A stretch of DNA of 40,252 nucleotides from a virus. Shown here in pieces: positions 11,416-40,151 of this stretch. The DNA is taken from positions 1 to 40,252 of IMG/VR virus record IMGVR_UViG_3300047121_000304; one strand, written 5' to 3'. The notes under the pieces were generated by a model. The model did no database searches, was not told the origin of the DNA, and worked only from the letters and a program-made list of their open reading frames with translations. Position numbers and translations under genes: made by a program. How positions within the stretch are numbered: the stretch's first letter is position 1; each line of letters opens with the position of its first letter.

Positions 11416-13008
11416 ATGCCTAGTTTAGGTACAGGATTGTCTTTGGGGACAATCAGCCGAATCAATAATTTTGATTTTGACGCTTCTAGTTATATAACTA
11501 GCAGAGGAATACCTAATTCGGCTAATATTTTATCTGTAAACAGAAATTATCACGAGTTTAACGGAACAAATTATTTTAAATTTTCTTTAACTTCTACTAA
11601 TTCTGGAAAATTTAATCAACTCAAACTTACGGCTGGTTTAGCTAGATCGTTTTCTTTTTGGGCTAAAATTTCTGACGTTAGCCGTACTCAATGGATTTTT
11701 GGTAAAGAATTAGAATATGCTTTTAGAATCCAAAATTCTTCTGAAATACAAGTTTTATATGGAAATGTTGGAGGATCATCTTGGCTTCAAACTTTAATAT
11801 TTAATCTTTCTTCACCTTTAGTTAACAACACTTGGACTCATTTTTATTTTGTTTTAAATAGGTCGACAAATTTAGCTAGGCTTTATGTAAACGGCTCTTT
11901 GGTAGGATCGGCAATAAGCTTAAACACAACTGCGTTTACTTCCAATAATAATAGTTTTACTATTGGAGATAAAGACCCTCAAAACGTAAATCAATCGTTT
12001 ATTGGCGGGTTAAAACACTTTTGGGTTAGCTCCGTTGAGCACACTCAAGCAAATATTACTTATTTTTATAATTCAGGAAATGTAAGAGATCAAGGGTTGG
12101 TTCTTAATCCTGTTAATTTGGTGTTTTATTTTAATTTTGAAGGGCCGTTAGTTGATCGTGGTATTTTAGATTTTGGGACAGCTTCTTCTGGAATTTCAGT
12201 AAATACCTCTGAAAGCACATTTATTAGTGTAAATCCGCAAACTTTAATTAATTCTTTTGTTGTTCAGGTTAAAAATGCCGGGATTTGGAATAATATGGTT
12301 TGCTGGCCTTTAAGAAATTTCCAAAATGGGAACACTTCTGGAACCGCTTTTTCTTTGGGAGGAAAAGCCAGTATAAATTTATCAATTTTAAACTATTTGT
12401 CTGGGACGACTCAAACTGAACAAGGTCTTTTCACAAACGATGGATCATCAGTTTTAAGTACAATTTTAGGTAGCACTAATACTTGGACAGACGCTTCTCT
12501 GGTTAGCGTGATGAACACTAATGTAGTTATGAACGGATTTGCCGGGTTTCCGTTGATTTTACAGCTTTCAACTAATAATTATAGTAACTCTGGAACTTAC
12601 GATTTAATCTGCAATGGGGACGAAAATAGAGCATATAGGGGTAGTATTAAAAATGCTTCAACTTTTGTTCAAACCCCTGATGTTACTAACACATATAGGT
12701 CTAGGTTTATTGCTTCAACTTTAACCCCTTCTAGTGTTACTTGCAGTATTAACAATTCCAGCCCTTTATCTATATCTAATTCAACTTCTCAAGCCGCTGT
12801 TTTTGATAGAATATCGGTAGGAACTAGATATGCAGGGAGTAATACCCCTCAAATTAGTTCAGCTAATTCTTATGGGGGTTATGATTATGCTATTGCCCCA
12901 CCAGCTTCTTATTTAGCATTTAAAGCTATATTTGATACAAACATAAATATTTCTACTTTTTATTCTATTTATAAAAATACTCTTGGAGTTGGGCTTCCTC
13001 TTCCCTAA
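11416..13008 (+). CDS. LamG-domain virion protein, candidate receptor-binding protein
   Basis: A 530-residue AT-rich gene after GCAGGGG. Residues about 45-225 show a laminin-G/concanavalin-A-like jelly roll: YHEFNGTNYF, SFSFWAKI, NNTWTHFYFVLNRS, LARLYVNGSLVGS, FIGGLKHFWVSS. The remaining 300 residues are Asn/Ser-rich beta structure containing NMVCWPLRNFQNG and LYSIYKN-like ends, of the type found in phage adhesins. LamG folds usually bind glycans. No gp17-type fibre gene is seen after the internal virion proteins, so this protein may supply host recognition. That is inference; a head-decorating role is the main alternative. It overlaps the portal gene by 1 nt. Confidence 0.7.
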   Translation: MPSLGTGLSLGTISRINNFDFDASSYITSRGIPNSANILSVNRNYHEFNGTNYFKFSLTSTNSGKFNQLKLTAGLARSFSFWAKISDVSRTQWIFGKELEYAFRIQNSSEIQVLYGNVGGSSWLQTLIFNLSSPLVNNTWTHFYFVLNRSTNLARLYVNGSLVGSAISLNTTAFTSNNNSFTIGDKDPQNVNQSFIGGLKHFWVSSVEHTQANITYFYNSGNVRDQGLVLNPVNLVFYFNFEGPLVDRGILDFGTASSGISVNTSESTFISVNPQTLINSFVVQVKNAGIWNNMVCWPLRNFQNGNTSGTAFSLGGKASINLSILNYLSGTTQTEQGLFTNDGSSVLSTILGSTNTWTDASLVSVMNTNVVMNGFAGFPLILQLSTNNYSNSGTYDLICNGDENRAYRGSIKNASTFVQTPDVTNTYRSRFIASTLTPSSVTCSINNSSPLSISNSTSQAAVFDRISVGTRYAGSNTPQISSANSYGGYDYAIAPPASYLAFKAIFDTNINISTFYSIYKNTLGVGLPLP

Positions 13009-14573
13009 TGAGCAAAACAGCTTCAGCCCTGTACGCAGAGCTAGAAACTTCTCGCAACACTTACTTGCAGAGGGCTAGAGATTGCTCTGTACTGACCATT
13101 CCAACATTGATTCCCCCTGCTGGACACAGCAACGCCAGCAACTACGAAACTCCTTTTCAGGGAGTAGGGGCAAGGGGAGTTAATAACATTGCTTCTAAGC
13201 TTCTTCTTGCTTTGTTTCCGCCAAACGCCTCTTTCTTTCGTTTGGTAATTGATCCCTATAAATTAAAAAAACTTGGTGGCGGGGAAGAACTAAAAGTTGA
13301 AATGGAAAAAGCGTTGGCTGAAATTGAGAACGCAGTCAGCAAGGAAATTGAAACTTCAGCTTTGCGTGTTCCGATTTTTGAAGCTTTAAAACACCTTATT
13401 GTTGCCGGGAATGTACTTATTTATTTCCCTGAAAAAGGCGGTATGCGGGTGTTTAAACTTGAGAACTATGTTGTTAAACGTGATCCTTTTGGAAATGTAT
13501 TAAATATTGTAACAAAAGAGTGCGTATCTCCTTCTGCCCTTCCTGACGAAGCCAAGGCAATGTATAAAAAGCACGAAAAAGAAGAAGGCGAAGAATATTC
13601 TAATGACGACAGCGTTGACATTTATACCTGTGTCCACCGCAAAGACAATAAGTGGGAAGTGTATCAGGAAATTGAGGGCGAAATGGTTCCTGAATCTGAT
13701 GGAGAATACCCTATTGATAAGTGCCCATTTATCCCTCTTCGTTATAGCCGTATTGATGGAGAAGACTATGGCCGTGGATTGGTTGAGGAGTACCTAGGGG
13801 ATTTGCGTTCTTTGGAAGCCCTTACACAAGCTATTGTGGAGGGTTCGGCTTCTGCCTCCAAAGTGTTGTTTTTAGTTAATCCTAATGGTACTACCAAAAT
13901 TAAATCTTTGGCAGAATCCAAAAACGGCCAGTTTGTTTCTGGGAATGTGGCCGATGTTAACGCCCTTCAGCTTCAAAAATACGGAGATTTCCGGGTGGCA
14001 AAAGAAGTTATGGTGGAGATTCAAACCCGCCTAGCTTTTGCTTTCCTCCTTAATTCTTCTGTTCAGCGTGACGCAGAAAGAGTAACAGCCCAAGAGATTA
14101 GGTTTATGGCTCAAGAGTTGGAAACTGCCCTTGGGGGAGCCTATTCAATCCTTAGCCAAGAATTCCAGCTTCCTATGGTGTCTCGCATTATGGATCGGAT
14201 GAGCAAGGCTAGTCGCCTTCCGAAGCTTCCGAAGAATGATTTGATTCGTCCTATGATTATTACCGGGGTGGAAGCCCTTGGTCGTGGAAACGACCTTACC
14301 AAGCTGGATTTGTTCTTGTCTGGGCTTGCTCAAATTTTTGGCCCTGAAGCAATGATGCAATTTGTAAATATTGAAAATTATCTTAAGCGTAGGGCTACTG
14401 CGTTAAATATTGATACAGAAGGTCTTGTAAAAACTGCTGAGCAAATAGAACAGCAGAAACAACAATCTATGGCTTTGCAGTTGACAAATAACCTTGGGCC
14501 TCAGACAATCAAGGGAATATCTGATGTCGCTGGTAAAACTATGCAACAGCAGATGCAACAAACTCAGCAGTAA
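13008..14573 (+). CDS. Portal (head-tail connector) protein, T7 gp8-like
   Basis: Forms the dodecameric ring at the capsid vertex through which DNA is packaged and ejected. The 521-residue length is close to T7 gp8 (536). Family-typical stretches are the N-terminal YLQRARDCSVLTIPTLIPP, GVGARGVNNIASKLLLALFPP, the clip/stem region RYSRIDGEDYGRGLVEEYLG (about 245-264), ERVTAQEIRFMAQELETALGG (about 358-378), and a Gln-rich C-terminus (MQQQMQQTQQ). Its ATG overlaps the stop of the LamG gene, and the scaffold gene follows. Confidence 0.95.
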   Translation: MSKTASALYAELETSRNTYLQRARDCSVLTIPTLIPPAGHSNASNYETPFQGVGARGVNNIASKLLLALFPPNASFFRLVIDPYKLKKLGGGEELKVEMEKALAEIENAVSKEIETSALRVPIFEALKHLIVAGNVLIYFPEKGGMRVFKLENYVVKRDPFGNVLNIVTKECVSPSALPDEAKAMYKKHEKEEGEEYSNDDSVDIYTCVHRKDNKWEVYQEIEGEMVPESDGEYPIDKCPFIPLRYSRIDGEDYGRGLVEEYLGDLRSLEALTQAIVEGSASASKVLFLVNPNGTTKIKSLAESKNGQFVSGNVADVNALQLQKYGDFRVAKEVMVEIQTRLAFAFLLNSSVQRDAERVTAQEIRFMAQELETALGGAYSILSQEFQLPMVSRIMDRMSKASRLPKLPKNDLIRPMIITGVEALGRGNDLTKLDLFLSGLAQIFGPEAMMQFVNIENYLKRRATALNIDTEGLVKTAEQIEQQKQQSMALQLTNNLGPQTIKGISDVAGKTMQQQMQQTQQ

Positions 14574-17204: not shown

Positions 17205-18821
17205 ATGGCTAGTACCCCTACTTCTAAACTAGAAGCACTTAATTCAATTCTTTCTTACGCAGGGGAAGCACCGATTACTTCTTTGGATTATGTGGCCGAT
17301 TCTGTTAGTGCCACTATTGCCAATAATGTTTTAAATGAGGTTGATCGTTCTTTTCAAACTAAAGGATGGTCTTTTAACACGGATATTGATTACACTTTTG
17401 TTCGAGATGGAGTTAATAACATCTCTGTACCAAGCAACGCTATTCGCATTAATGTTTTAGAATCCACTTACCCTACTTTGAAGGTAGTTCAGCGTGGAAC
17501 CAAACTTTATGATGCAAAAGGCAAAACCTATGTGTTTGCCACTAACATTGTAGGAGAGATGGTTTCGTTATTGGATTTTGATCTGCTTCCTGAATCAGCA
17601 CGAAACTATGTTGTTATTCGTTCAGGTAGGATGTTTCTTTCTAGGACAAGAGCCGATGAAACACAGGCTAAGATTACAGAACTAGATGAACAGCTTGCGT
17701 TTGCTAATTTTCTAGATTACGAAGTTCGTTCCGGGGCCGACACTAATTTTTCTAAGTATTCTGCCGAGCTAGAAGCACTAGGCATTAATCAGGCCATTTT
17801 CCTTGCTTCTTCTGTAGATGACAAGCTTAAGCTAATTCAAACCTCTGCCACTAACCTTACCGAAAGGCAAGGACGGCTTTATTATCAAAATAGAATTGAG
17901 AATAAAACCACTTCAGCTTCAGACACCTACGATACCTACAGGACGCAGTTTAATCGCCTTGGAATGTCTGAAAAGGAGTTTCTAGCCCTCGATCCGCTCC
18001 AAAAAGAGGAAGCTTTGGTTATTGCCAAGGGAACAAGCACAACTGCCGATGCTAGAGCTACAGCTTTTAATACCGCAAACATTCAAACTAACCTTAGAAA
18101 GCTTGGAATTAAGTTCTCGGATTTCTTGGGTCTTAGCCGGGAACAGCAACAGCTAATGCTGGATGGTGCTTCTGGTTTGGATAATGTAATCGCCAGCACA
18201 AGCGTTGCCGTGGCTAGTTTTGAAAACGCATCTAACAGGAACAAAGCACTTAATCAGGTTTTGCGTTTTATTAACATCCCTCCTGTAAGTAGTATTACGG
18301 CCTCTGACACTTCCTACACGGCAGATAAGCTATTGTCAGAAATTGAAAAAATTGTCCAAGCTGAAGGATGGCATTTTAACACAGAACTAGACTTTACTTT
18401 AACTAGAGATGTAAATAACGAAATCTTGTTGTCCCAAGTTGCTCTACCTGTTCTTGCTGTGGATGCTGACAAATATCAGGATTATAAGCACAATATTGTT
18501 ATAAGAAACAACAAGCTTTGGGATGTAAACAAATCTGTTTCTACATTTAGTTCTGATGTAAAAGTAGAGCTAGTTCTTCAGCACTCTTGGGACAACATTC
18601 CTGTACCTATTCAGCGTTATATTATTACAAGAACAGCCAAAGAGCTTTCAGCAACGATGGGAAGAACAGATGCACTCCAAGCCCTTGCGGTTGAAGAGAA
18701 CAGGGCAAAAGTTGAAGCAACTCAGTATGACGAAGAACAGGGAGATTATAGTATTTTTGATTCTTACGATGTAGCTAGAGTTTTGGATAGGTCTATTGGT
18801 TATTCAAATACATCTATTTGA
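17205..18821 (+). CDS. Tail tubular protein A (gp11-like), internally duplicated
   Basis: Tail tube / head-completion protein joining the portal to the tail nozzle. T7 gp11 is 196 residues; this one is 538. The N-terminal copy (about 5-165) shows KLEALNSILSYAGEAPITSL, GWSFNTDIDYTFVRD and ARNYVVIRSGRMF. A second copy (about 345-510) shows RNKALNQVLRFINIPPVSS, GWHFNTELDFTLTRD and IQRYIITRTAKEL. Between them are three approximate repeats centred on LEALGINQAIFLA, FNRLGMSEKEFLAL and LRKLGIKFSDFLGL. The ATG at 17205 follows GAAAGG; an earlier TTG is unlikely. Confidence 0.9.
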   Translation: MASTPTSKLEALNSILSYAGEAPITSLDYVADSVSATIANNVLNEVDRSFQTKGWSFNTDIDYTFVRDGVNNISVPSNAIRINVLESTYPTLKVVQRGTKLYDAKGKTYVFATNIVGEMVSLLDFDLLPESARNYVVIRSGRMFLSRTRADETQAKITELDEQLAFANFLDYEVRSGADTNFSKYSAELEALGINQAIFLASSVDDKLKLIQTSATNLTERQGRLYYQNRIENKTTSASDTYDTYRTQFNRLGMSEKEFLALDPLQKEEALVIAKGTSTTADARATAFNTANIQTNLRKLGIKFSDFLGLSREQQQLMLDGASGLDNVIASTSVAVASFENASNRNKALNQVLRFINIPPVSSITASDTSYTADKLLSEIEKIVQAEGWHFNTELDFTLTRDVNNEILLSQVALPVLAVDADKYQDYKHNIVIRNNKLWDVNKSVSTFSSDVKVELVLQHSWDNIPVPIQRYIITRTAKELSATMGRTDALQALAVEENRAKVEATQYDEEQGDYSIFDSYDVARVLDRSIGYSNTSI

Positions 18822-18824
18822 CCT

Positions 18825-21800
18825 ATGCCTAACATAGTTTCAAACATCCCTAATTTTGTTAGCGGGGTAAGCCAACAGCCCCGGACAATGCGGTTTCCTT
18901 CTCAAGCCGAAGAGTCTATTAACGCTTTTCCTTCCGTAGTTGAGGGTTTAACAAAGCGTCCTCCCAGCCAGCATATTAAAAGATTGTATACAACTGGATT
19001 AGCTCAAAACCACGATACGGCTCATTTTATTGACCGATCCGAAACTGAGCGATATGTAACAGAAATTAGAAATGGAACTATTCGGGTTTGGGATTTAGAC
19101 GGAAATGAAAAAACTGTTTACTATGGAGGAGCAACTCCTTCTACTTCTCCAACAGCACAGGCTTCTACTTTTCTTACTGGCGGTGACACAGATTTTAAAA
19201 TGCTTACTATTGCGGACTATACTTTTGTTTTAAACAAAACAATTGCTCCTCAATTTACATCCGACAAAGTTTTGCACGTTTTAGCTGGTTCTTCAAAAAA
19301 CAGACTACAGAAAGTTGCTTTGTTTACTATTAAACAAATGGCCGATCTTTCTGAATTTACTATTCGCATAGATTGTAAAGTACCCGGCACAAGCCAAGCA
19401 AGAAGCATATTATACAGAGTAACAACAGGAATAGCTACTGACACTACTGCGGGTTGGAATGTCCAATACCAAGCTTTTAGGTCTGATAATTTTCTTGGTT
19501 ACTCTTTAATAAGACAAGAGCGAATAAAATTTACATCTTCTTTAGTAAATAACACAACTACTTTAGCTCAAACTTTGAGTGCATTTATTGCTAATGGGAC
19601 TACAGGGGCGACACTAGAATCTTCATCTGGAACAATTACAACTTTGGCAACAATGACAGGATATTCTGGATGGCTTTCTTTCTATAGTTCTTCAGTTTTG
19701 TACTTTACAAACGATTCAGTTTACGGATCAACAAATCCAAATAGCTACGACACAAACGGAGATTTAATTTGGGGTGCTTCTGCTTCAGATAGTGCCGGGG
19801 GAGCTATTTTAAATTTAAATTTTGGAGATGTTCAGGCTTTTTCTGATTTACCCCGCCACGCTTTGCATAATACAATATATAAAATTGTTGGATATCCCCA
19901 AGATACAGGAGATGAATATTGGGTAAAATTTAATGCTTGGCAAAATGCCATTTCAGGATCGCTTCAAAGCGAAGGAGAGTGGAAAGAAACAATTGCTCCG
20001 GGGGAATATTATAAAATTAACCCGGTAACAATGCCTTGGGCTTTAATACGCCTTTCTACAGGTAATTTTGCATTTACTCCTTTGGATGGCGTTTCTAGGA
20101 CTTATGGTTCAGTTACCTTTGTTCCGCCAAAGTGGGCAGACAAAATGTGCGGGGATAGCGAAACAAACAAAGACCCAAGTTTTTTAAATCCAAATGGAGT
20201 TACAACTAAAAAAATTAATGACATTTTCTTTTATAAAAACAGGTTAGGCTTTCTTTCAGAAGAAAATGTAATATTTTCTGAATCTGGAGAATATTTTAAT
20301 TTTTTTAGAACTACAATTACACAAACTTTAGATGCCGACAGAATTGATATTGCTTCAAGTTCAGTTAATGTCACTAATTTAAATTATGCTATTCCGTTTT
20401 TTGACAGATTGTTACTTTTTGCCGAAAATAGCCAATTCAGTCTTATTGGATCGGATAATTTAACTGCAAAAAGTGCATCTATTCAAATTTCCACAAGCTA
20501 CTCTGCAATTCCAGATGTCCCGCCTGTAGGAGTTGGTAAATTTGTTTATTTCCCATTCTTTAAAAACAATTATTCTGGAGTTAGAGAATATTTTTTAAAT
20601 CCTGAAAATGCGTTTATGGAGGCTAACGATATTAGCGTTAACATTCCTAAGTATATTGAAGGAAAAATTAGGGTAATGTCCGCATCTGACACAGAAAGCA
20701 TTCTTGCTGTTTTATCAAGAACGAATAAAAATATTTTATACATATATAAATATTTAAACATTGGCTCAGAGCGTGTTCAAGGAGCTTGGAGCAAATTTGC
20801 TTTTTCGACATCCGACAACATTTTGTTTGTTTTCTTTAAAAAAGAAATTATGTACATTTTAGTACAACGAGACGATGGTGTTTATCTTGAAAAAATAGAT
20901 TTTCAAGCTTTTCAGGAAAAACAATATCTTCCTTATGTTCCAAGAATGGACAGGCTTGTTGCTGTTTATTCAACCGGGGCAGGGGCAGAATCAAATCTTT
21001 CTGGAATTACAACATCTTTTTCTAACTCTCAGACTACTATTACATTGCCTTTAAGTTTTGGAAATGCAAAACCTTTAGCTGTTGCCGGGTTTTCGCCTGA
21101 AAGTGATTTGTCTTTAAAATTAACTGGAGTGGAGCCTTCTTACGCATATTCTTCAAATTCTTCAGATTTTTATAGAAACAATTTGCCAAATAATTTTACA
21201 ATTTTTGGCTTTTTTAAGCCTGAAAATTTAAACAATCAAGTAATTTTTATTTTAGATAAAGGTGCGTTAGAAAATTGGAAAGCTGTTCAATTGAACATAT
21301 CAAATCAAAGCCTTAACGCTATGTGGAAAACTGAAGACAATTTTGGAGTACAAATAAGCGTTTCTGGTGTTGTTTTAGGAGAATGGAACAGATTTATTAT
21401 TGCTTATAACTCTACTACAAATCAAATTTCATTAAGATTAAATAATACGACATCTACAATATCAACTTCTTCTGTTTCATACTTAGACATTGCTCCAATA
21501 GCGGAAAACAATTTTGTAGGGTCTTTAGATAATTTAGGAATTATTAAAGATTATGTTAATCCTACAACCCTAGATGTTTGGCTAGATCAAACAGCAAACG
21601 GAGCCAATTTATATTCAGTTATAAGTAAAAGTTTGTCTACTTTGCTTAGCTTTTTTACTTTTAATTCAAATGATGGAGATGTTTTAACAGATGTTCATTC
21701 AAAAGTTGTCGTTTTTGATAAAATAAAAGGTAAATATTTAAATTCGTCTCAGTCTACAACTCCAAATGTAATTTTTGACGAAATTAAAATTGTAAGCCAT

Positions 21801-22229
21801 ACTATTGTTTCTGGTCAGTCAACCATTGTTGTTGAGGGTTCTTTAAACTCATACAATGGCCCTATTTACTTTGGAGTTCCGTACACAATGTTTCACACAA
21901 TAACTCCTGTTTCTTTAAGAGCACCGGGACAAAAAGGAGGTCAAATTCTTGTTTCTAGCGGAAATTTACAGCTAAAATACGCTTATCTTGCATATACAAA
22001 TAGTAAATCTTTTAGTGTAGTTGTTTCATCTAACGACCCGGCCCAAGGAAACAATTATACTTACCGATATTTGTCTTCTAAAGGCTTACAAACAGGCATA
22101 TTTAGATTTCCTATATTCTGTAAAACTGAAAACGCTTTTATCAGTTTTATTAACTCCACAATCTATCCTTCCTGTTTTTCGTCAGCAGATTTTGAAGGCA
22201 CTCTCACCAATTCTTTCCAAAGAGCTTAA
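18825..22229 (+). CDS. Tail tubular protein B / tail nozzle (gp12-like) with LamG insertion
   Basis: Forms the hexameric nozzle of the short tail. The N-terminus is typical of gp12: VSNIPNFVSGVSQQPRTMRF, then SINAFPSVVEGLTKRPPSQH; the centre has KINDIFFYKNRLGFLSEENV and SSVNVTNLNYAIPFFDRLLLF. It has 1134 residues against 794 in T7. Much of the excess is a LamG/jelly-roll-like region at about 765-920 (NNFTIFGFFKPENL, GEWNRFIIAYNSTTNQISLR, VGSLDNLGIIKDY), after which gp12-like beta structure resumes. The gene is AT-rich. It begins four bases after tail tubular A. Confidence 0.93.
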   Translation: MPNIVSNIPNFVSGVSQQPRTMRFPSQAEESINAFPSVVEGLTKRPPSQHIKRLYTTGLAQNHDTAHFIDRSETERYVTEIRNGTIRVWDLDGNEKTVYYGGATPSTSPTAQASTFLTGGDTDFKMLTIADYTFVLNKTIAPQFTSDKVLHVLAGSSKNRLQKVALFTIKQMADLSEFTIRIDCKVPGTSQARSILYRVTTGIATDTTAGWNVQYQAFRSDNFLGYSLIRQERIKFTSSLVNNTTTLAQTLSAFIANGTTGATLESSSGTITTLATMTGYSGWLSFYSSSVLYFTNDSVYGSTNPNSYDTNGDLIWGASASDSAGGAILNLNFGDVQAFSDLPRHALHNTIYKIVGYPQDTGDEYWVKFNAWQNAISGSLQSEGEWKETIAPGEYYKINPVTMPWALIRLSTGNFAFTPLDGVSRTYGSVTFVPPKWADKMCGDSETNKDPSFLNPNGVTTKKINDIFFYKNRLGFLSEENVIFSESGEYFNFFRTTITQTLDADRIDIASSSVNVTNLNYAIPFFDRLLLFAENSQFSLIGSDNLTAKSASIQISTSYSAIPDVPPVGVGKFVYFPFFKNNYSGVREYFLNPENAFMEANDISVNIPKYIEGKIRVMSASDTESILAVLSRTNKNILYIYKYLNIGSERVQGAWSKFAFSTSDNILFVFFKKEIMYILVQRDDGVYLEKIDFQAFQEKQYLPYVPRMDRLVAVYSTGAGAESNLSGITTSFSNSQTTITLPLSFGNAKPLAVAGFSPESDLSLKLTGVEPSYAYSSNSSDFYRNNLPNNFTIFGFFKPENLNNQVIFILDKGALENWKAVQLNISNQSLNAMWKTEDNFGVQISVSGVVLGEWNRFIIAYNSTTNQISLRLNNTTSTISTSSVSYLDIAPIAENNFVGSLDNLGIIKDYVNPTTLDVWLDQTANGANLYSVISKSLSTLLSFFTFNSNDGDVLTDVHSKVVVFDKIKGKYLNSSQSTTPNVIFDEIKIVSHTIVSGQSTIVVEGSLNSYNGPIYFGVPYTMFHTITPVSLRAPGQKGGQILVSSGNLQLKYAYLAYTNSKSFSVVVSSNDPAQGNNYTYRYLSSKGLQTGIFRFPIFCKTENAFISFINSTIYPSCFSSADFEGTLTNSFQRA

Positions 22230-29813: not shown

Positions 29814-30028
29814 GTGACGAACTACACAGAAGCCTAGGCAAGCTTGAAGGTATGATTACTGAGGTTTTAAGAAACCAACAGGATTTTAAAAGTACTTTTG
29901 AAAAGCACGATACACGCCTACGGCACATTGAAGGCAATTATATGAAGGGGCTTGGCATTGTAACGGCCATTGCTTTTGGTGTTACTTACTTGTGGGATAT
30001 TATTAAACATAAAGTATTTGGTAGCTAA
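29810..30028 (+). CDS. Small tail-anchored membrane protein
   Basis: A 72-residue protein. The N-terminal two-thirds is a coiled-coil-like helix (LHRSLGKLEGMITEVLRNQ, then FKSTFEKHDTRLRHIE), and the C-terminus is one membrane span GLGIVTAIAFGVTYLWDII with a short basic end. It sits between gp16-like and terS, where T7 has the gene 17.5 holin. Could be a second lysis component or a regulator of the holin; no sequence signature decides. Overlaps the preceding gene by ATGA. Confidence 0.7.
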   Translation: MSDELHRSLGKLEGMITEVLRNQQDFKSTFEKHDTRLRHIEGNYMKGLGIVTAIAFGVTYLWDIIKHKVFGS

Positions 30029-30029
30029 G

Positions 30030-30305
30030 ATGGACGCTAACGCAGTCAAAACCAAGCTGGAAGAACTGCACGAATTGGTTGCAGATGCCTTGCTGGATAA
30101 GATTCGGGATGGGGAAGCTACCCCGGCAGATTTAAATGTCGCTAGGCAGTTTCTTAAAGATAACGGCATTGATGCCATCCCCGGAAAAGATACCCCCCTG
30201 TTTAATCTAGCCCTTGCCCTGCCGTTTCAGGATCAAGGAAAGCCGTTGGAAATTAAAGGAATTCAAGTAAAGGAACCCGCTCCGCTTCCGTTTAACGAGG
30301 TTTAA
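30030..30305 (+). CDS. terS: Terminase small subunit (DNA maturase A, gp18-like)
   Basis: Recognises the packaging site and delivers DNA to the large subunit. The 91 residues match T7 gp18 (89). The N-terminal pattern KTKLEELHELVADALLDKI followed by EATPADLNVARQFLKDNGID is strongly family-typical. The ATG at 30030 is two bases after the membrane-protein stop. The C-terminal tail (KEPAPLPFNEV) is Pro-rich and probably flexible. It is separated from terL by three small genes and a 157-nt gap. Confidence 0.92.
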   Translation: MDANAVKTKLEELHELVADALLDKIRDGEATPADLNVARQFLKDNGIDAIPGKDTPLFNLALALPFQDQGKPLEIKGIQVKEPAPLPFNEV

Positions 30306-30309
30306 TTTT

Positions 30310-30600
30310 ATGTGTTCACCCGGAATGGATCAATTAGGAAAATTTATGGCATCTCCTATTTTAGCTACGCAAGGAAAAGAAAATCCTTTAGGCTTAAAAT
30401 TTACCCCGGCAAACCAACCTCAAGCTTCATCGCAAATAAACGACCCTTCAAGTTCACAGCCTCAAAGAATTCAACAGCAAAATCAAGTTACTTCCATTGC
30501 TTCGGCTCCTAAAGTAGCACCAAAGTTTAACTTTAGGTCTAGCCCATTTTCAATTCAACAAGAACAAGCCGGGGGTGAATCCGGGCTTAATGTAGGATAA
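30310..30600 (+). CDS. Low-complexity unknown protein with FNFRSS motif
   Basis: A 96-residue Gln/Ser/Pro-rich protein beginning MCSPGMDQLGKFM. Middle part is disordered (SQPQRIQQQNQVTS). It carries KFNFRSSPF at about residues 74-82; the next gene ends in RFNFRSS, so the two probably share a docking motif. No domain recognised. Its place between terS and terL and its composition suggest a small virion or assembly protein. Confidence 0.55.
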   Translation: MCSPGMDQLGKFMASPILATQGKENPLGLKFTPANQPQASSQINDPSSSQPQRIQQQNQVTSIASAPKVAPKFNFRSSPFSIQQEQAGGESGLNVG

Positions 30601-30605
30601 TTTTT

Positions 30606-30971
30606 ATGGCTAATTTTATTCCTCTTTCGTCAGCTTCATCCGACCCTTCGTTTGAAAACTGGTACAAAAACATTTATAGGCCGTCTTTTGCAGGACTAAG
30701 AGGAGCTCTGCTTGCTCCTCGCCTCCTGACTTCAACGGCACTACCAAGTGTAACAGAAGCATTTGGAAAATATAAAGCAAGCCTTCCAGACAGCCCTCAA
30801 AGCATTCAAAAAAATATGGAGTCTCAAGGACTTGTTTACGACAGCCCATTCTTTCCTAGAGGATTTAATTTACAGCAATTTATGATTGGTCGGTCAGCCA
30901 ACTCTAGCAGTAATTCAGGACTAGGCGAAAAATCGTATGCTGGAGGAAGGTTTAACTTTAGGAGCAGTTAA
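30606..30971 (+). CDS. Unknown protein ending in the shared FNFRSS motif
   Basis: A 121-residue protein with an aromatic/basic N-terminal part (FENWYKNIYRPSFAGLRGALL), a helix-like middle, a segment VYDSPFFPRGFNLQQFMIG and a Ser/Asn/Gly-rich end terminating GRFNFRSS. The terminal motif repeats one in the preceding gene. No enzyme motif or signal peptide. Probably a small structural or assembly factor (inference). Confidence 0.55.
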   Translation: MANFIPLSSASSDPSFENWYKNIYRPSFAGLRGALLAPRLLTSTALPSVTEAFGKYKASLPDSPQSIQKNMESQGLVYDSPFFPRGFNLQQFMIGRSANSSSNSGLGEKSYAGGRFNFRSS

Positions 30972-30973
30972 GT

Positions 30974-31195
30974 ATGAGGAACTACGCCAAGGAATACCGG
31001 GAATACCAAGGAACCCCTGAGCAAATTCGCAGAAGGGCTAGGCGGAATCGTGCACGAAGGCTGATGATTAAAAAGTTTGGTAAATCACGGCTCCGTAACA
31101 AGGATGTTGACCACAAGGATGGCAACCCAATGAACAATTCTTATTCAAATCTTCGTATTATGTCTAAAGCCAAAAATAGGGGCAGAAACAACTAA
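30974..31195 (+). CDS. HNH-type endonuclease
   Basis: A 73-residue very basic protein. The C-terminal half shows the HNH core: DVDHKDGNPMNNSYSNLRIM (His at about 48, Asn at about 55, Asn-Leu-Arg near 60), and NRGRNN at the end. The N-terminus is an Arg-rich helix (RRRARRNRARR). Small HNH proteins beside terminase genes can assist packaging in some phages, while others are homing enzymes; neither can be decided here. Confidence 0.78.
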   Translation: MRNYAKEYREYQGTPEQIRRRARRNRARRLMIKKFGKSRLRNKDVDHKDGNPMNNSYSNLRIMSKAKNRGRNN

Positions 31196-31352
31196 AAATC
31201 CGTGAATAAAAAGAAAAAAGGCCGTAAATACTAATAAGTGCCAAAAGCACTTTGCTTGATTATTAAGTAGTTGCACCATATTCAGTCTTATTTAGACTGA
31301 CCCACAGACATAGCCGTGCATATTTTTCCCACAACCACAAGGGCACAGCACT
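31196..31352 (+). promoter_or_regulatory. Hairpin-rich leader of the large terminase gene
   Basis: This 157-nt gap holds two perfect hairpins: AAGTGC (31236-31241) with GCACTT (31247-31252), embedded in TAATAA/TTATTA flanks, and TCAGTCT (31282-31288) with AGACTGA (31294-31300). A T5 run (31323-31327) follows at some distance. It could be an RNA-processing site, a phage promoter or a weak terminator. ACTAATAAG at 31230-31238 recurs at 34001-34009 in another gap, which is compatible with a shared promoter element. Confidence 0.45.
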
Positions 31353-36156: not shown

Positions 36157-37038
36157 ATGCAAAACATCGAAGCAACACTAAACCAATCGGGAAGGTATGC
36201 GGAAACTACTAGCCCCCGATTTAATCCGATCACCACAGGGCAAGTGATCGAAAACCTAGAAGGTTTGGGATGGGTTCCCTTTTCTTCCAAGGTAGTTAAA
36301 ACCCGAAACTTGGAGCGTAGACCTTACGCCAAACACTTGGTTTGCCTTAAGCAGAAAGCCGAACAGGCGGGGCAAGTGGGGGAATATCTCCCCCGCTTAA
36401 ACCTTCGCAACGCCAACGATGGAACGGCGAGTTTTGAAGTCTTCGCCGGATTCTATCGCCTTATCTGCTCTAATGGTTTGGCAATCGGCACAACCTATGC
36501 AACGGCGAAGATTCGGCATTCCCTTAGTTTGGATAAATTAGGGGATGCCGTTGCTCACGCCGTAGCGTCCACAGAGGAGCAATTAAAGAAAGGTGATAGC
36601 GTGATTAAGGAGTGGCAACGCATCACCCTAACGACAACTCAGCGGGAAAACCTTGCGGGTTTTGCCGTTGGGTTGCGTTGGCAAAATCTCTTTTCCGATT
36701 CGATGCGGGAAAAGGTTGGGCAAACTATGGAAAATCCCAACACTTTCCTAGTGTCTGAATATCGGGAAAGGGTTGAAAGCGTCCTGAGGGTTCGCCGTTC
36801 AGAGGATAACTCTTCCTCGCTTTGGCATACCTTCAACGCCATTCAGGAAAACGTGATCCAAGGCGGGTTCAATATCTACTCCCCTCGAAACTTTAGGGGA
36901 GGGGTTGCGGTGCGTCCTGTATTGTCTCGCCGCTTGGGAAACATTGCGGAGAGTGTCCGCATTAATCGTGCCTTGTGGGATGGGGCGGAAAAGATCGCCA
37001 ACGGCGAGACGCTCCCAACTTTGGCACTTACTAGCTAA
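36157..37038 (+). CDS. DUF932 (phage/plasmid-like) protein
   Basis: A 293-residue protein after AGGAGG (36142-36147). Features typical of DUF932: the N-terminal FNPITTGQVIENLEGLGW with VPFSSKVVKTRN, then YLPRLNLRNANDG followed by FEVFAGFYRLICSNGLAIG, RHSLSLDKLGDAVAHAVAST-type helix, and the late NTFNAIQENVIQGG-like segment. The family occurs widely in phages and plasmids; its biochemical role is not established. Base composition is clearly more GC-rich than the AT-rich flanks, suggesting a different history or stronger codon selection. Confidence 0.88.
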   Translation: MQNIEATLNQSGRYAETTSPRFNPITTGQVIENLEGLGWVPFSSKVVKTRNLERRPYAKHLVCLKQKAEQAGQVGEYLPRLNLRNANDGTASFEVFAGFYRLICSNGLAIGTTYATAKIRHSLSLDKLGDAVAHAVASTEEQLKKGDSVIKEWQRITLTTTQRENLAGFAVGLRWQNLFSDSMREKVGQTMENPNTFLVSEYRERVESVLRVRRSEDNSSSLWHTFNAIQENVIQGGFNIYSPRNFRGGVAVRPVLSRRLGNIAESVRINRALWDGAEKIANGETLPTLALTS

Positions 37039-37486: not shown

Positions 37487-38155
37487 ATGAATCATAAATT
37501 TTTAGATTGTCCCTTAGACGATAAAAATTCTAAGGAGATCACAGGCGGATTTTCTCGCCCTTCTAAAATGCCTTGCCCCGCCTTTTCCATTTCAGCGTTT
37601 CGTTGTAAAACAGGGGAAAAACTTAGGGCAATACCGGGAAGCACTTGCGAGATATGCTATGCAACCCGCAACACCTACCTTTACCCCAACACCAAAAACG
37701 CAATGGAAAGGAGGTATCAAGGTTTATCTCACCCTAGGTGGGCGGAAGCGATGGCCTTCCTTATTAAATGCGAAGGCAACGCATTTTTTAGGTGGCACGA
37801 TTCAGGGGACATCCAAAGCGTGGAACACTTACAAAAAATCGTGAAGGTTTGCACGCTAACCCCTAGCGTTTCCCATTGGTTGCCAACAAGGGAAGTAGGC
37901 ATTTTAGGGGAATATCTAAACAAGGGTTTTAGAATTCCTGAAAACCTGACCATTCGCCTTTCCGCCTTTATGGTGGACGCTCCCCCGCCTAAAGTTTTGG
38001 CGGAAAAGTTCGGTTGCGTTTCTTCCGTAGTTACTACTACCCCTGACAAGGTGGAAGCGAAGGTTTGCCCTAGCAATAAACAGGGGAATAAATGCTTAGA
38101 CTGTCGAGCCTGTTGGGATAAGGCGGAAAAGGTGGTGGCATATGTCGCACACTAA
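37487..38155 (+). CDS. GP88-like cysteine-rich phage protein
   Basis: A 222-residue protein with leader AGGAGGATAA (37471-37480). It contains cysteines at 30, 40, 54 and 57 (STCEICYATRNTY), the central motif FFRWHDSGDIQSVEHL (100-115), HWLPTREVG (130-138), RLSAFMVD, and a second cluster C194, C203, C206 and C209 (CLDCRACW). This combination matches the phage 'gene 88' family (GP88). The clusters may bind iron-sulfur or zinc; the role is unknown. It overlaps a tiny membrane-protein gene at its 3' end. Confidence 0.82.
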   Translation: MNHKFLDCPLDDKNSKEITGGFSRPSKMPCPAFSISAFRCKTGEKLRAIPGSTCEICYATRNTYLYPNTKNAMERRYQGLSHPRWAEAMAFLIKCEGNAFFRWHDSGDIQSVEHLQKIVKVCTLTPSVSHWLPTREVGILGEYLNKGFRIPENLTIRLSAFMVDAPPPKVLAEKFGCVSSVVTTTPDKVEAKVCPSNKQGNKCLDCRACWDKAEKVVAYVAH

Positions 38156-39007: not shown

Positions 39008-39340
39008 ATGATTGAAACGCCAAAAACAATAACAGGGAAGCGAGGGGGGTTTAACCTCATCGGAACTTTTCGCTGTTCAATGCCTCGCTTGCTTCAAGAG
39101 CAGAATCCATACGGATTGGATTGGGCCAATGTAGAGCTTACATATCACTCTGATCGCCTGATGTGGACTGCCCGGATTGATTGGCACAGGACAAGGGTGG
39201 ATGTGGATGGGGAAAGCGAACAGCAAGCCATAGAGGATGCTTGTAAGCATTTTCTTATCTGGTCGGATCAGGTCTTACACTCACAATACACGGAGGAACT
39301 AAACAATGAACACGCAGAGCAAACAAGTAACTTGGGCTGA
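39008..39340 (+). CDS. Unknown protein preceding the integrase
   Basis: A 110-residue protein with a good GGGAGG site. Mixed fold: RGGFNLIGTFRCSMPRLLQE, WANVELTYHSDRLMWTARI, RVDVDGESEQQAIEDACKHF. The latter helix-after-strand pattern is dsRBD- or ferredoxin-like, but not diagnostic. It overlaps the integrase start by 35 nt, so the two are co-translated; as such it may be an excisionase or regulator by position only. No recognised motif supports that. Confidence 0.65.
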   Translation: MIETPKTITGKRGGFNLIGTFRCSMPRLLQEQNPYGLDWANVELTYHSDRLMWTARIDWHRTRVDVDGESEQQAIEDACKHFLIWSDQVLHSQYTEELNNEHAEQTSNLG

Positions 39341-40151
39341 GCTTCAAAGCCAAGCCCTTAACCGAATCTGGAAAGGCACAAAGAGCGAGGCTACGGCTTC
39401 AGTCAACACTCAGAGTGCTGTTGAATTCTTTGGGGCTACAAACATTGTGGCTGACCTAGGGGTTCAGCAGATTGACGATTATGTTGACTCCCTGCAAACC
39501 AAGGGCAACAGCAATGCCACGATTAACAGGAAGCTTTCGGCCTTAAGCAAGATGCTGAAGTTTGCCTTGGATCGGGAGTGGATTACCAAGCTACCCAAGA
39601 TTCAAAAGCGTAAGGAATCCAATGGCAGGGTTCGGTGGTTAACCAAAGAGGAGGAGCAGAAGCTTGTGGATCACTTTTTAAGTGTTTCCCGGCCTGATGT
39701 TTCATCGCTGATTCTGTTTTTATTGGACACCGGGGCTAGGGCTGGCGAAGCCCTTGGGGTCAAGTGGAAGGACATCTCAGGGGGTTTAGTTACCTTTTGG
39801 GATACCAAAAACAATTCCCCACGATCCGTGCCGTTGACTAGCAGGGTTCAGACTTTGATTGGCAATGGTACTGCCGTGAATGGGGATGGGCCGTTTTCTT
39901 CGGTCAATTACCCTGAGTTTAATTACCTTTGGCAAAAGGCTAAGAAAGCTTTGGGTTTTGATTCGGATGACCAGTTCGTTCCCCATTGCCTACGGCATAC
40001 CTGTGCTTCCCGATTGGCCCAAGCCGGGGTTCCGTTGCTTACCATTAAGGAATTCCTAGGGCATAAGACCATTCAGGTGACGCTTCGTTATGCTCACCTT
40101 GCCCCAAAGCAGTTGGACAAGGCTAGGGAAGTACTGGAGCAAGCCGTATGA
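39306..40151 (+). CDS. int: Tyrosine recombinase / phage integrase
   Basis: Catalyses site-specific recombination between phage and host attachment sites. The 281-residue protein has an N-terminal core-binding (SAM-like) domain (about 10-100) and a catalytic domain with all signature residues: R145 in DTGARAGEAL, K168 in the DTKNNSPRSVPL beta-hairpin, H227 and R230 in PHCLRH, H253 in FLGHKT and nucleophile Y262 in LRYAHL. It lacks a separate N-terminal arm-binding domain, so it looks like a simple Xer-type integrase. It starts within the preceding gene and overlaps the next by ATGA. Good AGGAACTAAACA-type site upstream. Confidence 0.95.
   Translation: MNTQSKQVTWAELQSQALNRIWKGTKSEATASVNTQSAVEFFGATNIVADLGVQQIDDYVDSLQTKGNSNATINRKLSALSKMLKFALDREWITKLPKIQKRKESNGRVRWLTKEEEQKLVDHFLSVSRPDVSSLILFLLDTGARAGEALGVKWKDISGGLVTFWDTKNNSPRSVPLTSRVQTLIGNGTAVNGDGPFSSVNYPEFNYLWQKAKKALGFDSDDQFVPHCLRHTCASRLAQAGVPLLTIKEFLGHKTIQVTLRYAHLAPKQLDKAREVLEQAV

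What the first reader, a model, noticed from the sequence alone, without database searches (positions are those of the whole stretch)
17205..18821. Tail tubular A with two gp11-like copies and a triple-repeat linker
The protein is 538 residues instead of about 196. GWSFNTDIDYTFVRD in the first half matches GWHFNTELDFTLTRD in the second, and YVVIRSGRMF matches YIITRTAKEL in position. The linker holds three roughly 30-60-residue-spaced repeats (LEALGINQAIFLA, FNRLGMSEKEFLAL, LRKLGIKFSDFLGL). A ring protein present in two fused copies would change the subunit count or height of the tail adaptor.
Basis: seen in the sequence. Interest (0 to 1): 0.7.

Follow-up and report, generated by a model that had tools for sequence, protein, structure and literature searches.

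The report
Double-copy tail adaptor in T7-like phage
A virus related to phage T7 makes its head-to-tail ring from one protein that contains two different copies of the usual ring unit joined by a three-repeat helical linker, an arrangement shared by a small clade that has also lost the normal tail fibre, so it may change how the ring is built and how the phage grabs its host.

Summary
The 538-aa ORF at 17205-18821 contains two full gp11-type adaptor domains. Each half matches the family on its own (E 5e-43 and 3e-32) and each has the solved gp11 fold in an AF2 model (Z 19.6 and 18.0). They are joined by a 160-aa helical linker with three real repeats (0 of 100 shuffles reach the score). None of 1434 gp11-bearing phage records has the double form, but ten other IMG/VR contigs encode it or part of it. 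The linker is the most conserved segment. The halves have split the contact residues: copy 1 keeps the nozzle-contact Glu (T7 E26) and lacks the portal-embracing tail; copy 2 keeps that tail and its Arg (T7 R196) and has Ile for the Glu (8/8 each). My preferred reading, inferred only, is six chains forming an (AB)6 pseudo-dodecamer that builds in the 12-to-6 symmetry step. Stacked rings remain possible. The four double-adaptor genomes lack the T7 fibre anchor, present in all 14 single-adaptor genomes tested. Instead they carry a LamG-fold nozzle insert and, in some, a tailspike-like module on the adaptor.

The parts
17205..18821 (+). double-copy tail adaptor (tail tubular protein A / gp11-type), 538 aa
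17205..17744 (+). copy 1 (residues 1-180), canonical gp11 domain; keeps T7 E26 equivalent (E21); lacks its own C-terminal embracing helix
   Evidence: PHROG 446 4.9e-43; Z 19.6 to 8i4m_G
17745..18218 (+). linker (residues 181-338), predicted all-helical, most conserved segment of the clade
   Evidence: mean pairwise identity 83% vs 73% and 60% for the halves; secondary structure; no relatives outside the clade
17757..17846 (+). linker repeat 1 (residues 185-214, YSAELEALGINQAIFLASSVDDKLKLIQTS)
17937..18026 (+). linker repeat 2 (residues 245-274, YRTQFNRLGMSEKEFLALDPLQKEEALVIA)
18081..18170 (+). linker repeat 3 (residues 293-322, IQTNLRKLGIKFSDFLGLSREQQQLMLDGA)
18219..18821 (+). copy 2 (residues 339-538), diverged gp11 domain; keeps embracing-helix sequence and R529 (T7 R196), has I358 in place of T7 E26
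   Evidence: PHROG 446 2.8e-32; Z 18.0 to T7 gp11
18825..22229 (+). nozzle (tail tubular protein B / gp12), 1134 aa instead of about 790
   Evidence: PF25675 5.2e-175
21057..21779 (+). nozzle insert of about 240 aa, between the propeller end and the platform (T7 gp12 about 628-655); LamG/pentraxin-like fold predicted for 21153-21731
13008..14573 (+). portal; keeps the acidic stem residue (T7 D275) and basic clip residues at T7 307 and 309
   Evidence: PF12236 1.1e-94
11416..13008 (+). candidate receptor-binding protein: conserved N-terminus MPSLGxGLSLGT, variable body with LamG domain
   Evidence: PF13385 3.1e-15
29814..31352 (+). usual tail-fibre position between gp16 and the large terminase; only small ORFs of 72-121 aa, no PF03906

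Best explanation
The protein is the head-to-tail adaptor of a probably temperate, T7-like (Autographiviridae-type) phage, made as a covalent tandem of two differentiated gp11 domains. Proposed working: six chains assemble on the 12-fold portal clip as an alternating A-B ring of twelve gp11 domains, (AB)6. Copy 1 (A) supplies the strong nozzle contact through its alpha1-alpha2 loop. Copy 2 (B) supplies the C-terminal helix that embraces the portal stem. The helical three-repeat linker runs outside, between each copy 1 and the next copy 2. Each chain then presents one A-B pair to one gp12 nozzle subunit. In T7, identical gp11 chains have to adopt two alternating loop conformations to make this 12-to-6 step; here two different sequences would encode it. 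The clade has no T7-type fibre anchor, so the outer surface of the adaptor and nozzle, plus added modules (nozzle LamG-fold insert, separate LamG protein, and in some relatives a GDSL/tailspike-like C-terminus on the adaptor), probably takes over host binding. Shown: two domains, both under purifying selection, the residue split, the missing fibre anchor, the insert, the clade. Inferred: stoichiometry, geometry, linker position, adsorption role.
For: Two PF17212/PHROG 446 domains. Both halves have the gp11 fold (Z 19.6 and 18.0). Residue split over 8 clade members and 43 single-copy gp11s: T7 E26 (contacts gp12) is E in 42/43 singles, 8/8 copy 1, 0/8 copy 2 (all Ile). T7 R196 (contacts portal stem) is R in 42/43 singles, 0/8 copy 1, 8/8 copy 2. 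T7 E175 (portal clip) is acidic in all copy 1 (E) and 7/8 copy 2 (D), so both copies look able to touch the portal. The contacts themselves, and the two alternating conformations of the alpha1-alpha2 loop on one gp12, are from PMC6702177; nozzle R766 to adaptor E20 in P-SCSP1u is from PMC10575957. The portal keeps D275 and basic clip residues. All three segments are under purifying selection: where dS could be estimated, dN/dS is 0.01-0.25. No conserved internal start for copy 2. Fibre anchor PF03906: 0/4 double-adaptor genomes versus 12/12 single-adaptor contigs and 2/2 isolates, with complete gene maps and no room at the usual locus.
Against: No oligomer, mass or density was measured or modelled. 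The residue split also fits stacked rings (copy 2 on the portal, copy 1 on the nozzle). The alignment of the extreme C-terminal tails is loose for the most distant single-copy gp11s, although it is unambiguous for CRP-227-type tails (VARVLNR versus VARVLDR). The AF2 model has pTM 0.48, so it gives no relative placement of the domains and only low confidence in the linker. A tailspike module, usually trimeric (own knowledge), on a six-chain adaptor (L014) has an awkward stoichiometry. The fibre loss and the double adaptor are each one event on one clade, so their link is not statistically independent.
Confidence: 0.52

Rival explanations
1. Stacked rings: twelve chains per virion. Copy 2 forms a 12-mer on the portal, copy 1 a second 12-mer below it that holds the nozzle, giving a longer adaptor.
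For: Copy 2 keeps the portal-stem Arg and embracing-helix sequence, copy 1 the nozzle-contact Glu, as expected if each ring keeps one partner. The 160-aa linker could span a stack.
Against: Copy 1, not copy 2, is the better conserved adaptor overall (49 of 61 versus 28 of 61 conserved positions by the same count) and keeps the portal-clip residue E175. Copy 2 would need a new binding face for copy 1, and the portal keeps its usual counterpart residues.
Confidence: 0.22
2. Canonical 12-mer of copy 1 with copy 2 outside the ring: copy 2 and the linker decorate the collar, or fill the vacated fibre dock, acting as a base for host-binding modules (the GDSL/tailspike-like tail of L004-L006 and L014 follows copy 2).
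For: Copy 1 is the canonical adaptor. Copy 2 evolves fastest (60% mean identity) and carries the extra C-terminal module in three contigs. The fibre anchor is missing.
Against: Copy 2 keeps the embracing-helix sequence and Arg in 8/8 members, expected only if it still docks on the portal. Copy 1 lacks its own embracing helix.
Confidence: 0.18
3. The linker is cut during assembly (or copy 2 is started separately), so the virion contains two ordinary single-domain adaptor proteins.
For: Parts of the linker model are low confidence.
Against: The linker is the most conserved segment, 83% mean identity and dN/dS 0.01-0.10. Met318 is replaced in L013 and L014 and no internal start near copy 2 has a good ribosome-binding site.
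Confidence: 0.06
4. Assembly artefact: two gp11 genes or two genomes joined by mistake.
For: The window is a metagenomic viral contig.
Against: The same architecture occurs in independent contigs at 63-95% identity from several samples, one uninterrupted frame each, under purifying selection.
Confidence: 0.01

Closest known systems
T7 gp11 adaptor (tail tubular protein A; PDB 6r21, 7box, 7ey7) and cyanophage P-SCSP1u gp22 (8i4m)
   Same: Each half has the PF17212 sequence signature and the helix bundle plus beta dock fold; same gene position between capsid and nozzle genes; the key partner-contact residues are kept in one or both copies.
   Different: T7 and P-SCSP1u use one domain of about 200 aa in twelve identical chains. 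Here two diverged domains and a 160-aa repeat linker form one chain, and the E26 and R196 functions are divided between them.
Pelagibacter phage HTVC041P and Roseobacter phage CRP-227 (closest isolated relatives, integrase-bearing Autographiviridae)
   Same: Same gene order (integrase, RNA polymerase, portal, scaffold, capsid, adaptor, nozzle, internal proteins, terminase).
   Different: Single-domain adaptors of 195-198 aa, nozzles of 784-787 aa without insert, and a PF03906 tail fibre after gp16.
Vibrio phage VP2 tail tubular protein (741 aa)
   Same: An adaptor-like fold (BFVD match) extended by extra C-terminal domains (Ig, glycine-rich), like the C-terminal module in L004-L006 and L014.
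   Different: Extended with Ig-like and glycine-rich domains, no PF17212 match at all in Pfam, in a different phage group; it shows that adaptors can be extended, not that they are duplicated.
[quoted passage not shown]
   Same: Reported to bind the host receptor Vp0980 directly: a precedent for adaptor and nozzle taking part in adsorption.
   Different: Nothing about a duplicated adaptor is reported in the abstract read here; OWB's own adaptor was not examined.

Membership tests
Tail tubular protein A / gp11 adaptor (PF17212, PHROG 446) | Profile match above the curated cut-off | tested here: met
   217 bits versus cut-off 22.3, two stretches; both halves separately on PHROG 446
Tail tubular protein A / gp11 adaptor (PF17212, PHROG 446) | gp11 fold (up-down helix bundle plus beta fibre dock) | tested here: met
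   Model residues 3-203 Z 19.6, rmsd 2.5; residues 341-526 Z 18.0, rmsd 3.5
Tail tubular protein A / gp11 adaptor (PF17212, PHROG 446) | One adaptor domain per chain | tested here: not met
   Two domains per chain in all full-length clade members; so it is a member by domain, a variant by architecture
Tail tubular protein A / gp11 adaptor (PF17212, PHROG 446) | C-terminal embracing helix with portal-binding Arg | tested here: met
   Met by copy 2 (8/8); copy 1 has the linker instead (0/8). Sequence evidence; the model has low confidence there
Tail tubular protein A / gp11 adaptor (PF17212, PHROG 446) | 12-fold ring on the portal clip | not testable with these tools
   No complex prediction or experiment available
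T7-like podovirus (Autographiviridae) | Single-subunit RNA polymerase and T7-type portal, capsid, nozzle, terminase | tested here: met
   PF00940 3.8e-78, PF22530 1.2e-38; PF12236, PF21703, PF25675
T7-like podovirus (Autographiviridae) | gp17-type tail fibre anchor (PF03906) | tested here: not met
   Absent from window and G001-G003 with complete gene maps; present in 14/14 single-adaptor genomes. A diverged anchor below detection is not excluded. Treated as a lineage trait, not as grounds to exclude it from T7-like phages
Laminin G / pentraxin-like domain (nozzle insert) | LamG/ConA-like jelly-roll fold | tested here: met
   Model residues 90-282, Z 13.8, many LamG and pentraxin chains at Z 11-13; no Pfam LamG match by sequence
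Laminin G / pentraxin-like domain (nozzle insert) | Carbohydrate or receptor binding | not testable with these tools
   Fold only; no ligand data

The most novel reading that the evidence does not exclude
A phage lineage whose head-to-tail ring is a natural covalent heterodimer: six (A-B) chains encode the 12-to-6 symmetry step in sequence, while the T7-type fibre is lost and host binding has moved onto the adaptor and nozzle themselves (LamG insert at the fibre dock, tailspike/GDSL-like modules appended to the adaptor).
Probability: 0.4. Interest if true: 0.78.

Novelty: new variant of a known kind. Interest (0 to 1): 0.62.

Why it matters
How twelve identical adaptor subunits pass on to a six-fold nozzle is a standing question in short-tailed phages; in T7 one sequence takes two conformations. 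A fused, differentiated A-B adaptor would turn that into separate, mutable parts: each half can be changed alone, and the chain count (six or twelve) gives a clean answer. The lineage also offers a T7-like phage without a recognisable gp17-type fibre, a test of whether adaptor and nozzle can serve as the adsorption device.

Tried and rejected
1) Linker relatives: viral contigs, phage records at E up to 10, GTDB genomes and PDB sequences gave nothing outside the clade; the repeat unit occurs nowhere else in the window or fetched loci (that model was trained on these repeats, so it only shows absence elsewhere). 2) A link between the linker repeats and the fibre anchor: the fibre N-termini were only read by eye, with no resemblance seen; no alignment was run. 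3) Tandem duplication versus two origins: copies 1 and 2 are not sisters in the best tree, but one clade is not rejected (AU p 0.067), and long branches are present. 4) Profile-profile comparison of the nozzle insert with the LamG ORF was inconclusive (prob 4%), so the insert was folded instead. 5) Pfam's Sipho_Gp37 match to the insert (E 0.001, below cut-off) was not taken as a family assignment. 6) Other double adaptors: among 179 loci with gp11 only this clade has two domains. 7) Papers on fused or duplicated podovirus adaptors: none found in the searches made.

Full report
OBSERVATION. The ORF 17205-18821 (+) encodes 538 residues from an ATG. It sits between the major capsid protein gene and the nozzle gene. 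Pfam Tube (PF17212) matches two stretches (217 bits, cut-off 22.3) and PHROG 446 matches each isolated half (4.9e-43 and 2.8e-32) but not the linker. The halves are 26% identical to each other, E 9e-21, far beyond shuffles. The three linker repeats (residues 185-214, 245-274, 293-322; pattern LG....FL.L....K..L) give a triple score of 82 against a shuffled mean of 32.7, sd 9.6, none of 100 reaching it.

FOLD. AlphaFold2 on an alignment of 31 window and locus proteins (mean pLDDT 76, pTM 0.48) shows two gp11-like units: helices 8-18, 34-52, 130-148, 152-176 with strands between, and helices 344-355, 368-386, 467-485, 488-512 likewise. Against solved structures, residues 3-203 match the P-SCSP1u adaptor at Z 19.6 and residues 341-526 match T7 gp11 at Z 18.0 (Foldseek list). 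The linker is predicted helical, with a long helix 204-234, at low to moderate confidence. The low pTM means that the relative placement of the two units is unknown.

RELATIVES. tblastn finds 1434 phage records with gp11, none covering 80% of the double protein; in the best-scoring rows one single gp11 matches both halves. In IMG/VR, L001, L002, L004, L005 (same contig as L014), L007, L008 (L015), L009 (L016) and L013 carry the double form in full or nearly so, and L003, L006, L010 and L011 are fragments. Of 179 loci with a gp11 hit, only this clade has two domains in one frame. Mean pairwise identity is 73% for copy 1, 83% for the linker and 60% for copy 2. All three segments are under purifying selection; where dS could be estimated dN/dS is 0.01-0.25. 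In a tree of 59 domains, all copy 1 domains form one clade and all copy 2 domains another (100/100 each), so the fused form predates the clade. Whether copy 2 arose by duplication of copy 1 is unresolved (AU p 0.067).

DIVISION OF LABOUR. T7 structures (PMC6702177) show that gp11 E26 in the alpha1-alpha2 loop contacts the nozzle, in two alternating conformations on one gp12; that E173/E175/D177 contact the portal clip; and that R196 of the C-terminal embracing helix contacts the portal stem. Across 43 single-copy gp11s, E26 and R196 are conserved in 42 each. In the double clade, copy 1 keeps E26 (8/8) and lacks R196 (0/8), its tail running into the linker. Copy 2 has Ile instead of E26 (8/8) and keeps R196 (8/8) within a canonical tail (DSYDVARVLDR versus DSYSVARVLNR in CRP-227). 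E175 is Glu in all copy 1 and Asp in 7/8 copy 2. The portal keeps D275 and basic residues at 307 and 309. Caution: the extreme tail alignment is loose for the most distant singles.

HOW IT MOST LIKELY WORKS. Both copies look able to touch the portal clip, one supplies the embracing helix and the other the strong nozzle contact. The simplest arrangement is six chains in an alternating ring, (AB)6, with each chain offering one A-B pair to one nozzle subunit. In P-SCSP1u each nozzle and each fibre trimer is held by two adjacent adaptors (PMC10575957), so a covalent pair is a natural unit. This is inference: no complex was modelled or measured. Twelve chains in two stacked rings, or copy 2 outside the ring, remain possible.

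A FIBRE-LESS SETTING. The T7 fibre anchor PF03906 is absent from the window and from three other double-adaptor genomes (the 11-kb fragment G004 also lacks it but is too short to count). It is present in two closest isolates and in 12 of 12 single-adaptor contigs. Contig ends of G002 and G003 fall inside gp16 and the gene maps close, with only small ORFs between gp16 and terminase. The loss and the fusion are each one event on one clade, so this is association, not proof of a link. The nozzle of the clade is 1134-1200 aa instead of about 790, with an insert of about 240 aa between propeller end and platform (T7 gp12 about 628-655), the stretch that PMC6702177 calls the nozzle fibre dock (my placement by alignment). 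Its model (mean pLDDT 67) has a LamG/pentraxin fold (Z 13.8 over 90-282). An ORF upstream of the portal has a conserved N-terminus and a variable body, with LamG in the window and L016. In L004, L005/L014 and L006 the adaptor frame runs on past copy 2; in L004 and L014 it ends in a K1-lyase_C tailspike domain, with a weak GDSL match in L014, and the C-terminus resembles Streptomyces phage tailspikes. [quoted passage not shown]).

NOVELTY. By domain it is a gp11 adaptor; by architecture it is a new variant. No report of a duplicated podovirus adaptor was found in the library searched, which holds open-licence papers only. Three unread BFVD entries align end to end with the model (A0A516L4P3, A0A6J5LSM0, A0A516M5L4) and could be other double adaptors, so priority for the architecture in databases cannot be claimed.

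Noticed in passing
window 21057-21779 (nozzle): About 240-aa insert in the nozzle at or near the fibre dock with a predicted LamG/pentraxin fold, absent from the nozzles of the closest isolates and without matches in phage records.
   Followed up: yes
window 11416-13008; L014 4768-5832; L015 from 4293; L016 4270-5808: ORF just upstream of the portal with a conserved N-terminus (MPSLGxGLSLGT) and a variable body (LamG in window and L016, no Pfam hit in L014); no match in phage records. Candidate receptor-binding protein.
   Followed up: partly
L014 11597-13549; also L004 and L006: Adaptor frame continues about 650 aa beyond copy 2 into a low-complexity stretch, a weak GDSL-hydrolase match and a K1-lyase_C tailspike C-terminus.
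   Followed up: partly
window 29814-31352: No PF03906 tail fibre at the usual place between gp16 and the large terminase; four double-adaptor genomes lack it, 14 single-adaptor genomes have it.
   Followed up: yes
window 39306-40151: Tyrosine integrase next to the RNA polymerase gene (across the contig ends), as in HTVC041P and CRP-227: probably a temperate phage; no tRNA in the window.
   Followed up: no
BFVD entries A0A516L4P3, A0A6J5LSM0, A0A516M5L4: Viral proteins of 583, 512 and 1139 aa align over most of the double-adaptor model at 11-13% identity; possible other double adaptors, sequences not readable here.
   Followed up: no
L189 9329-11554 (Vibrio phage VP2): 741-aa tail tubular protein with an adaptor-like fold match plus Ig and glycine-rich domains: an adaptor with appended domains in a named phage.
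   Followed up: partly
window 36157-37038 and 37487-38155: A DUF932 protein and a PHROG 1392 protein of unknown function in the region after the terminase, both conserved in G001-G003.
   Followed up: no
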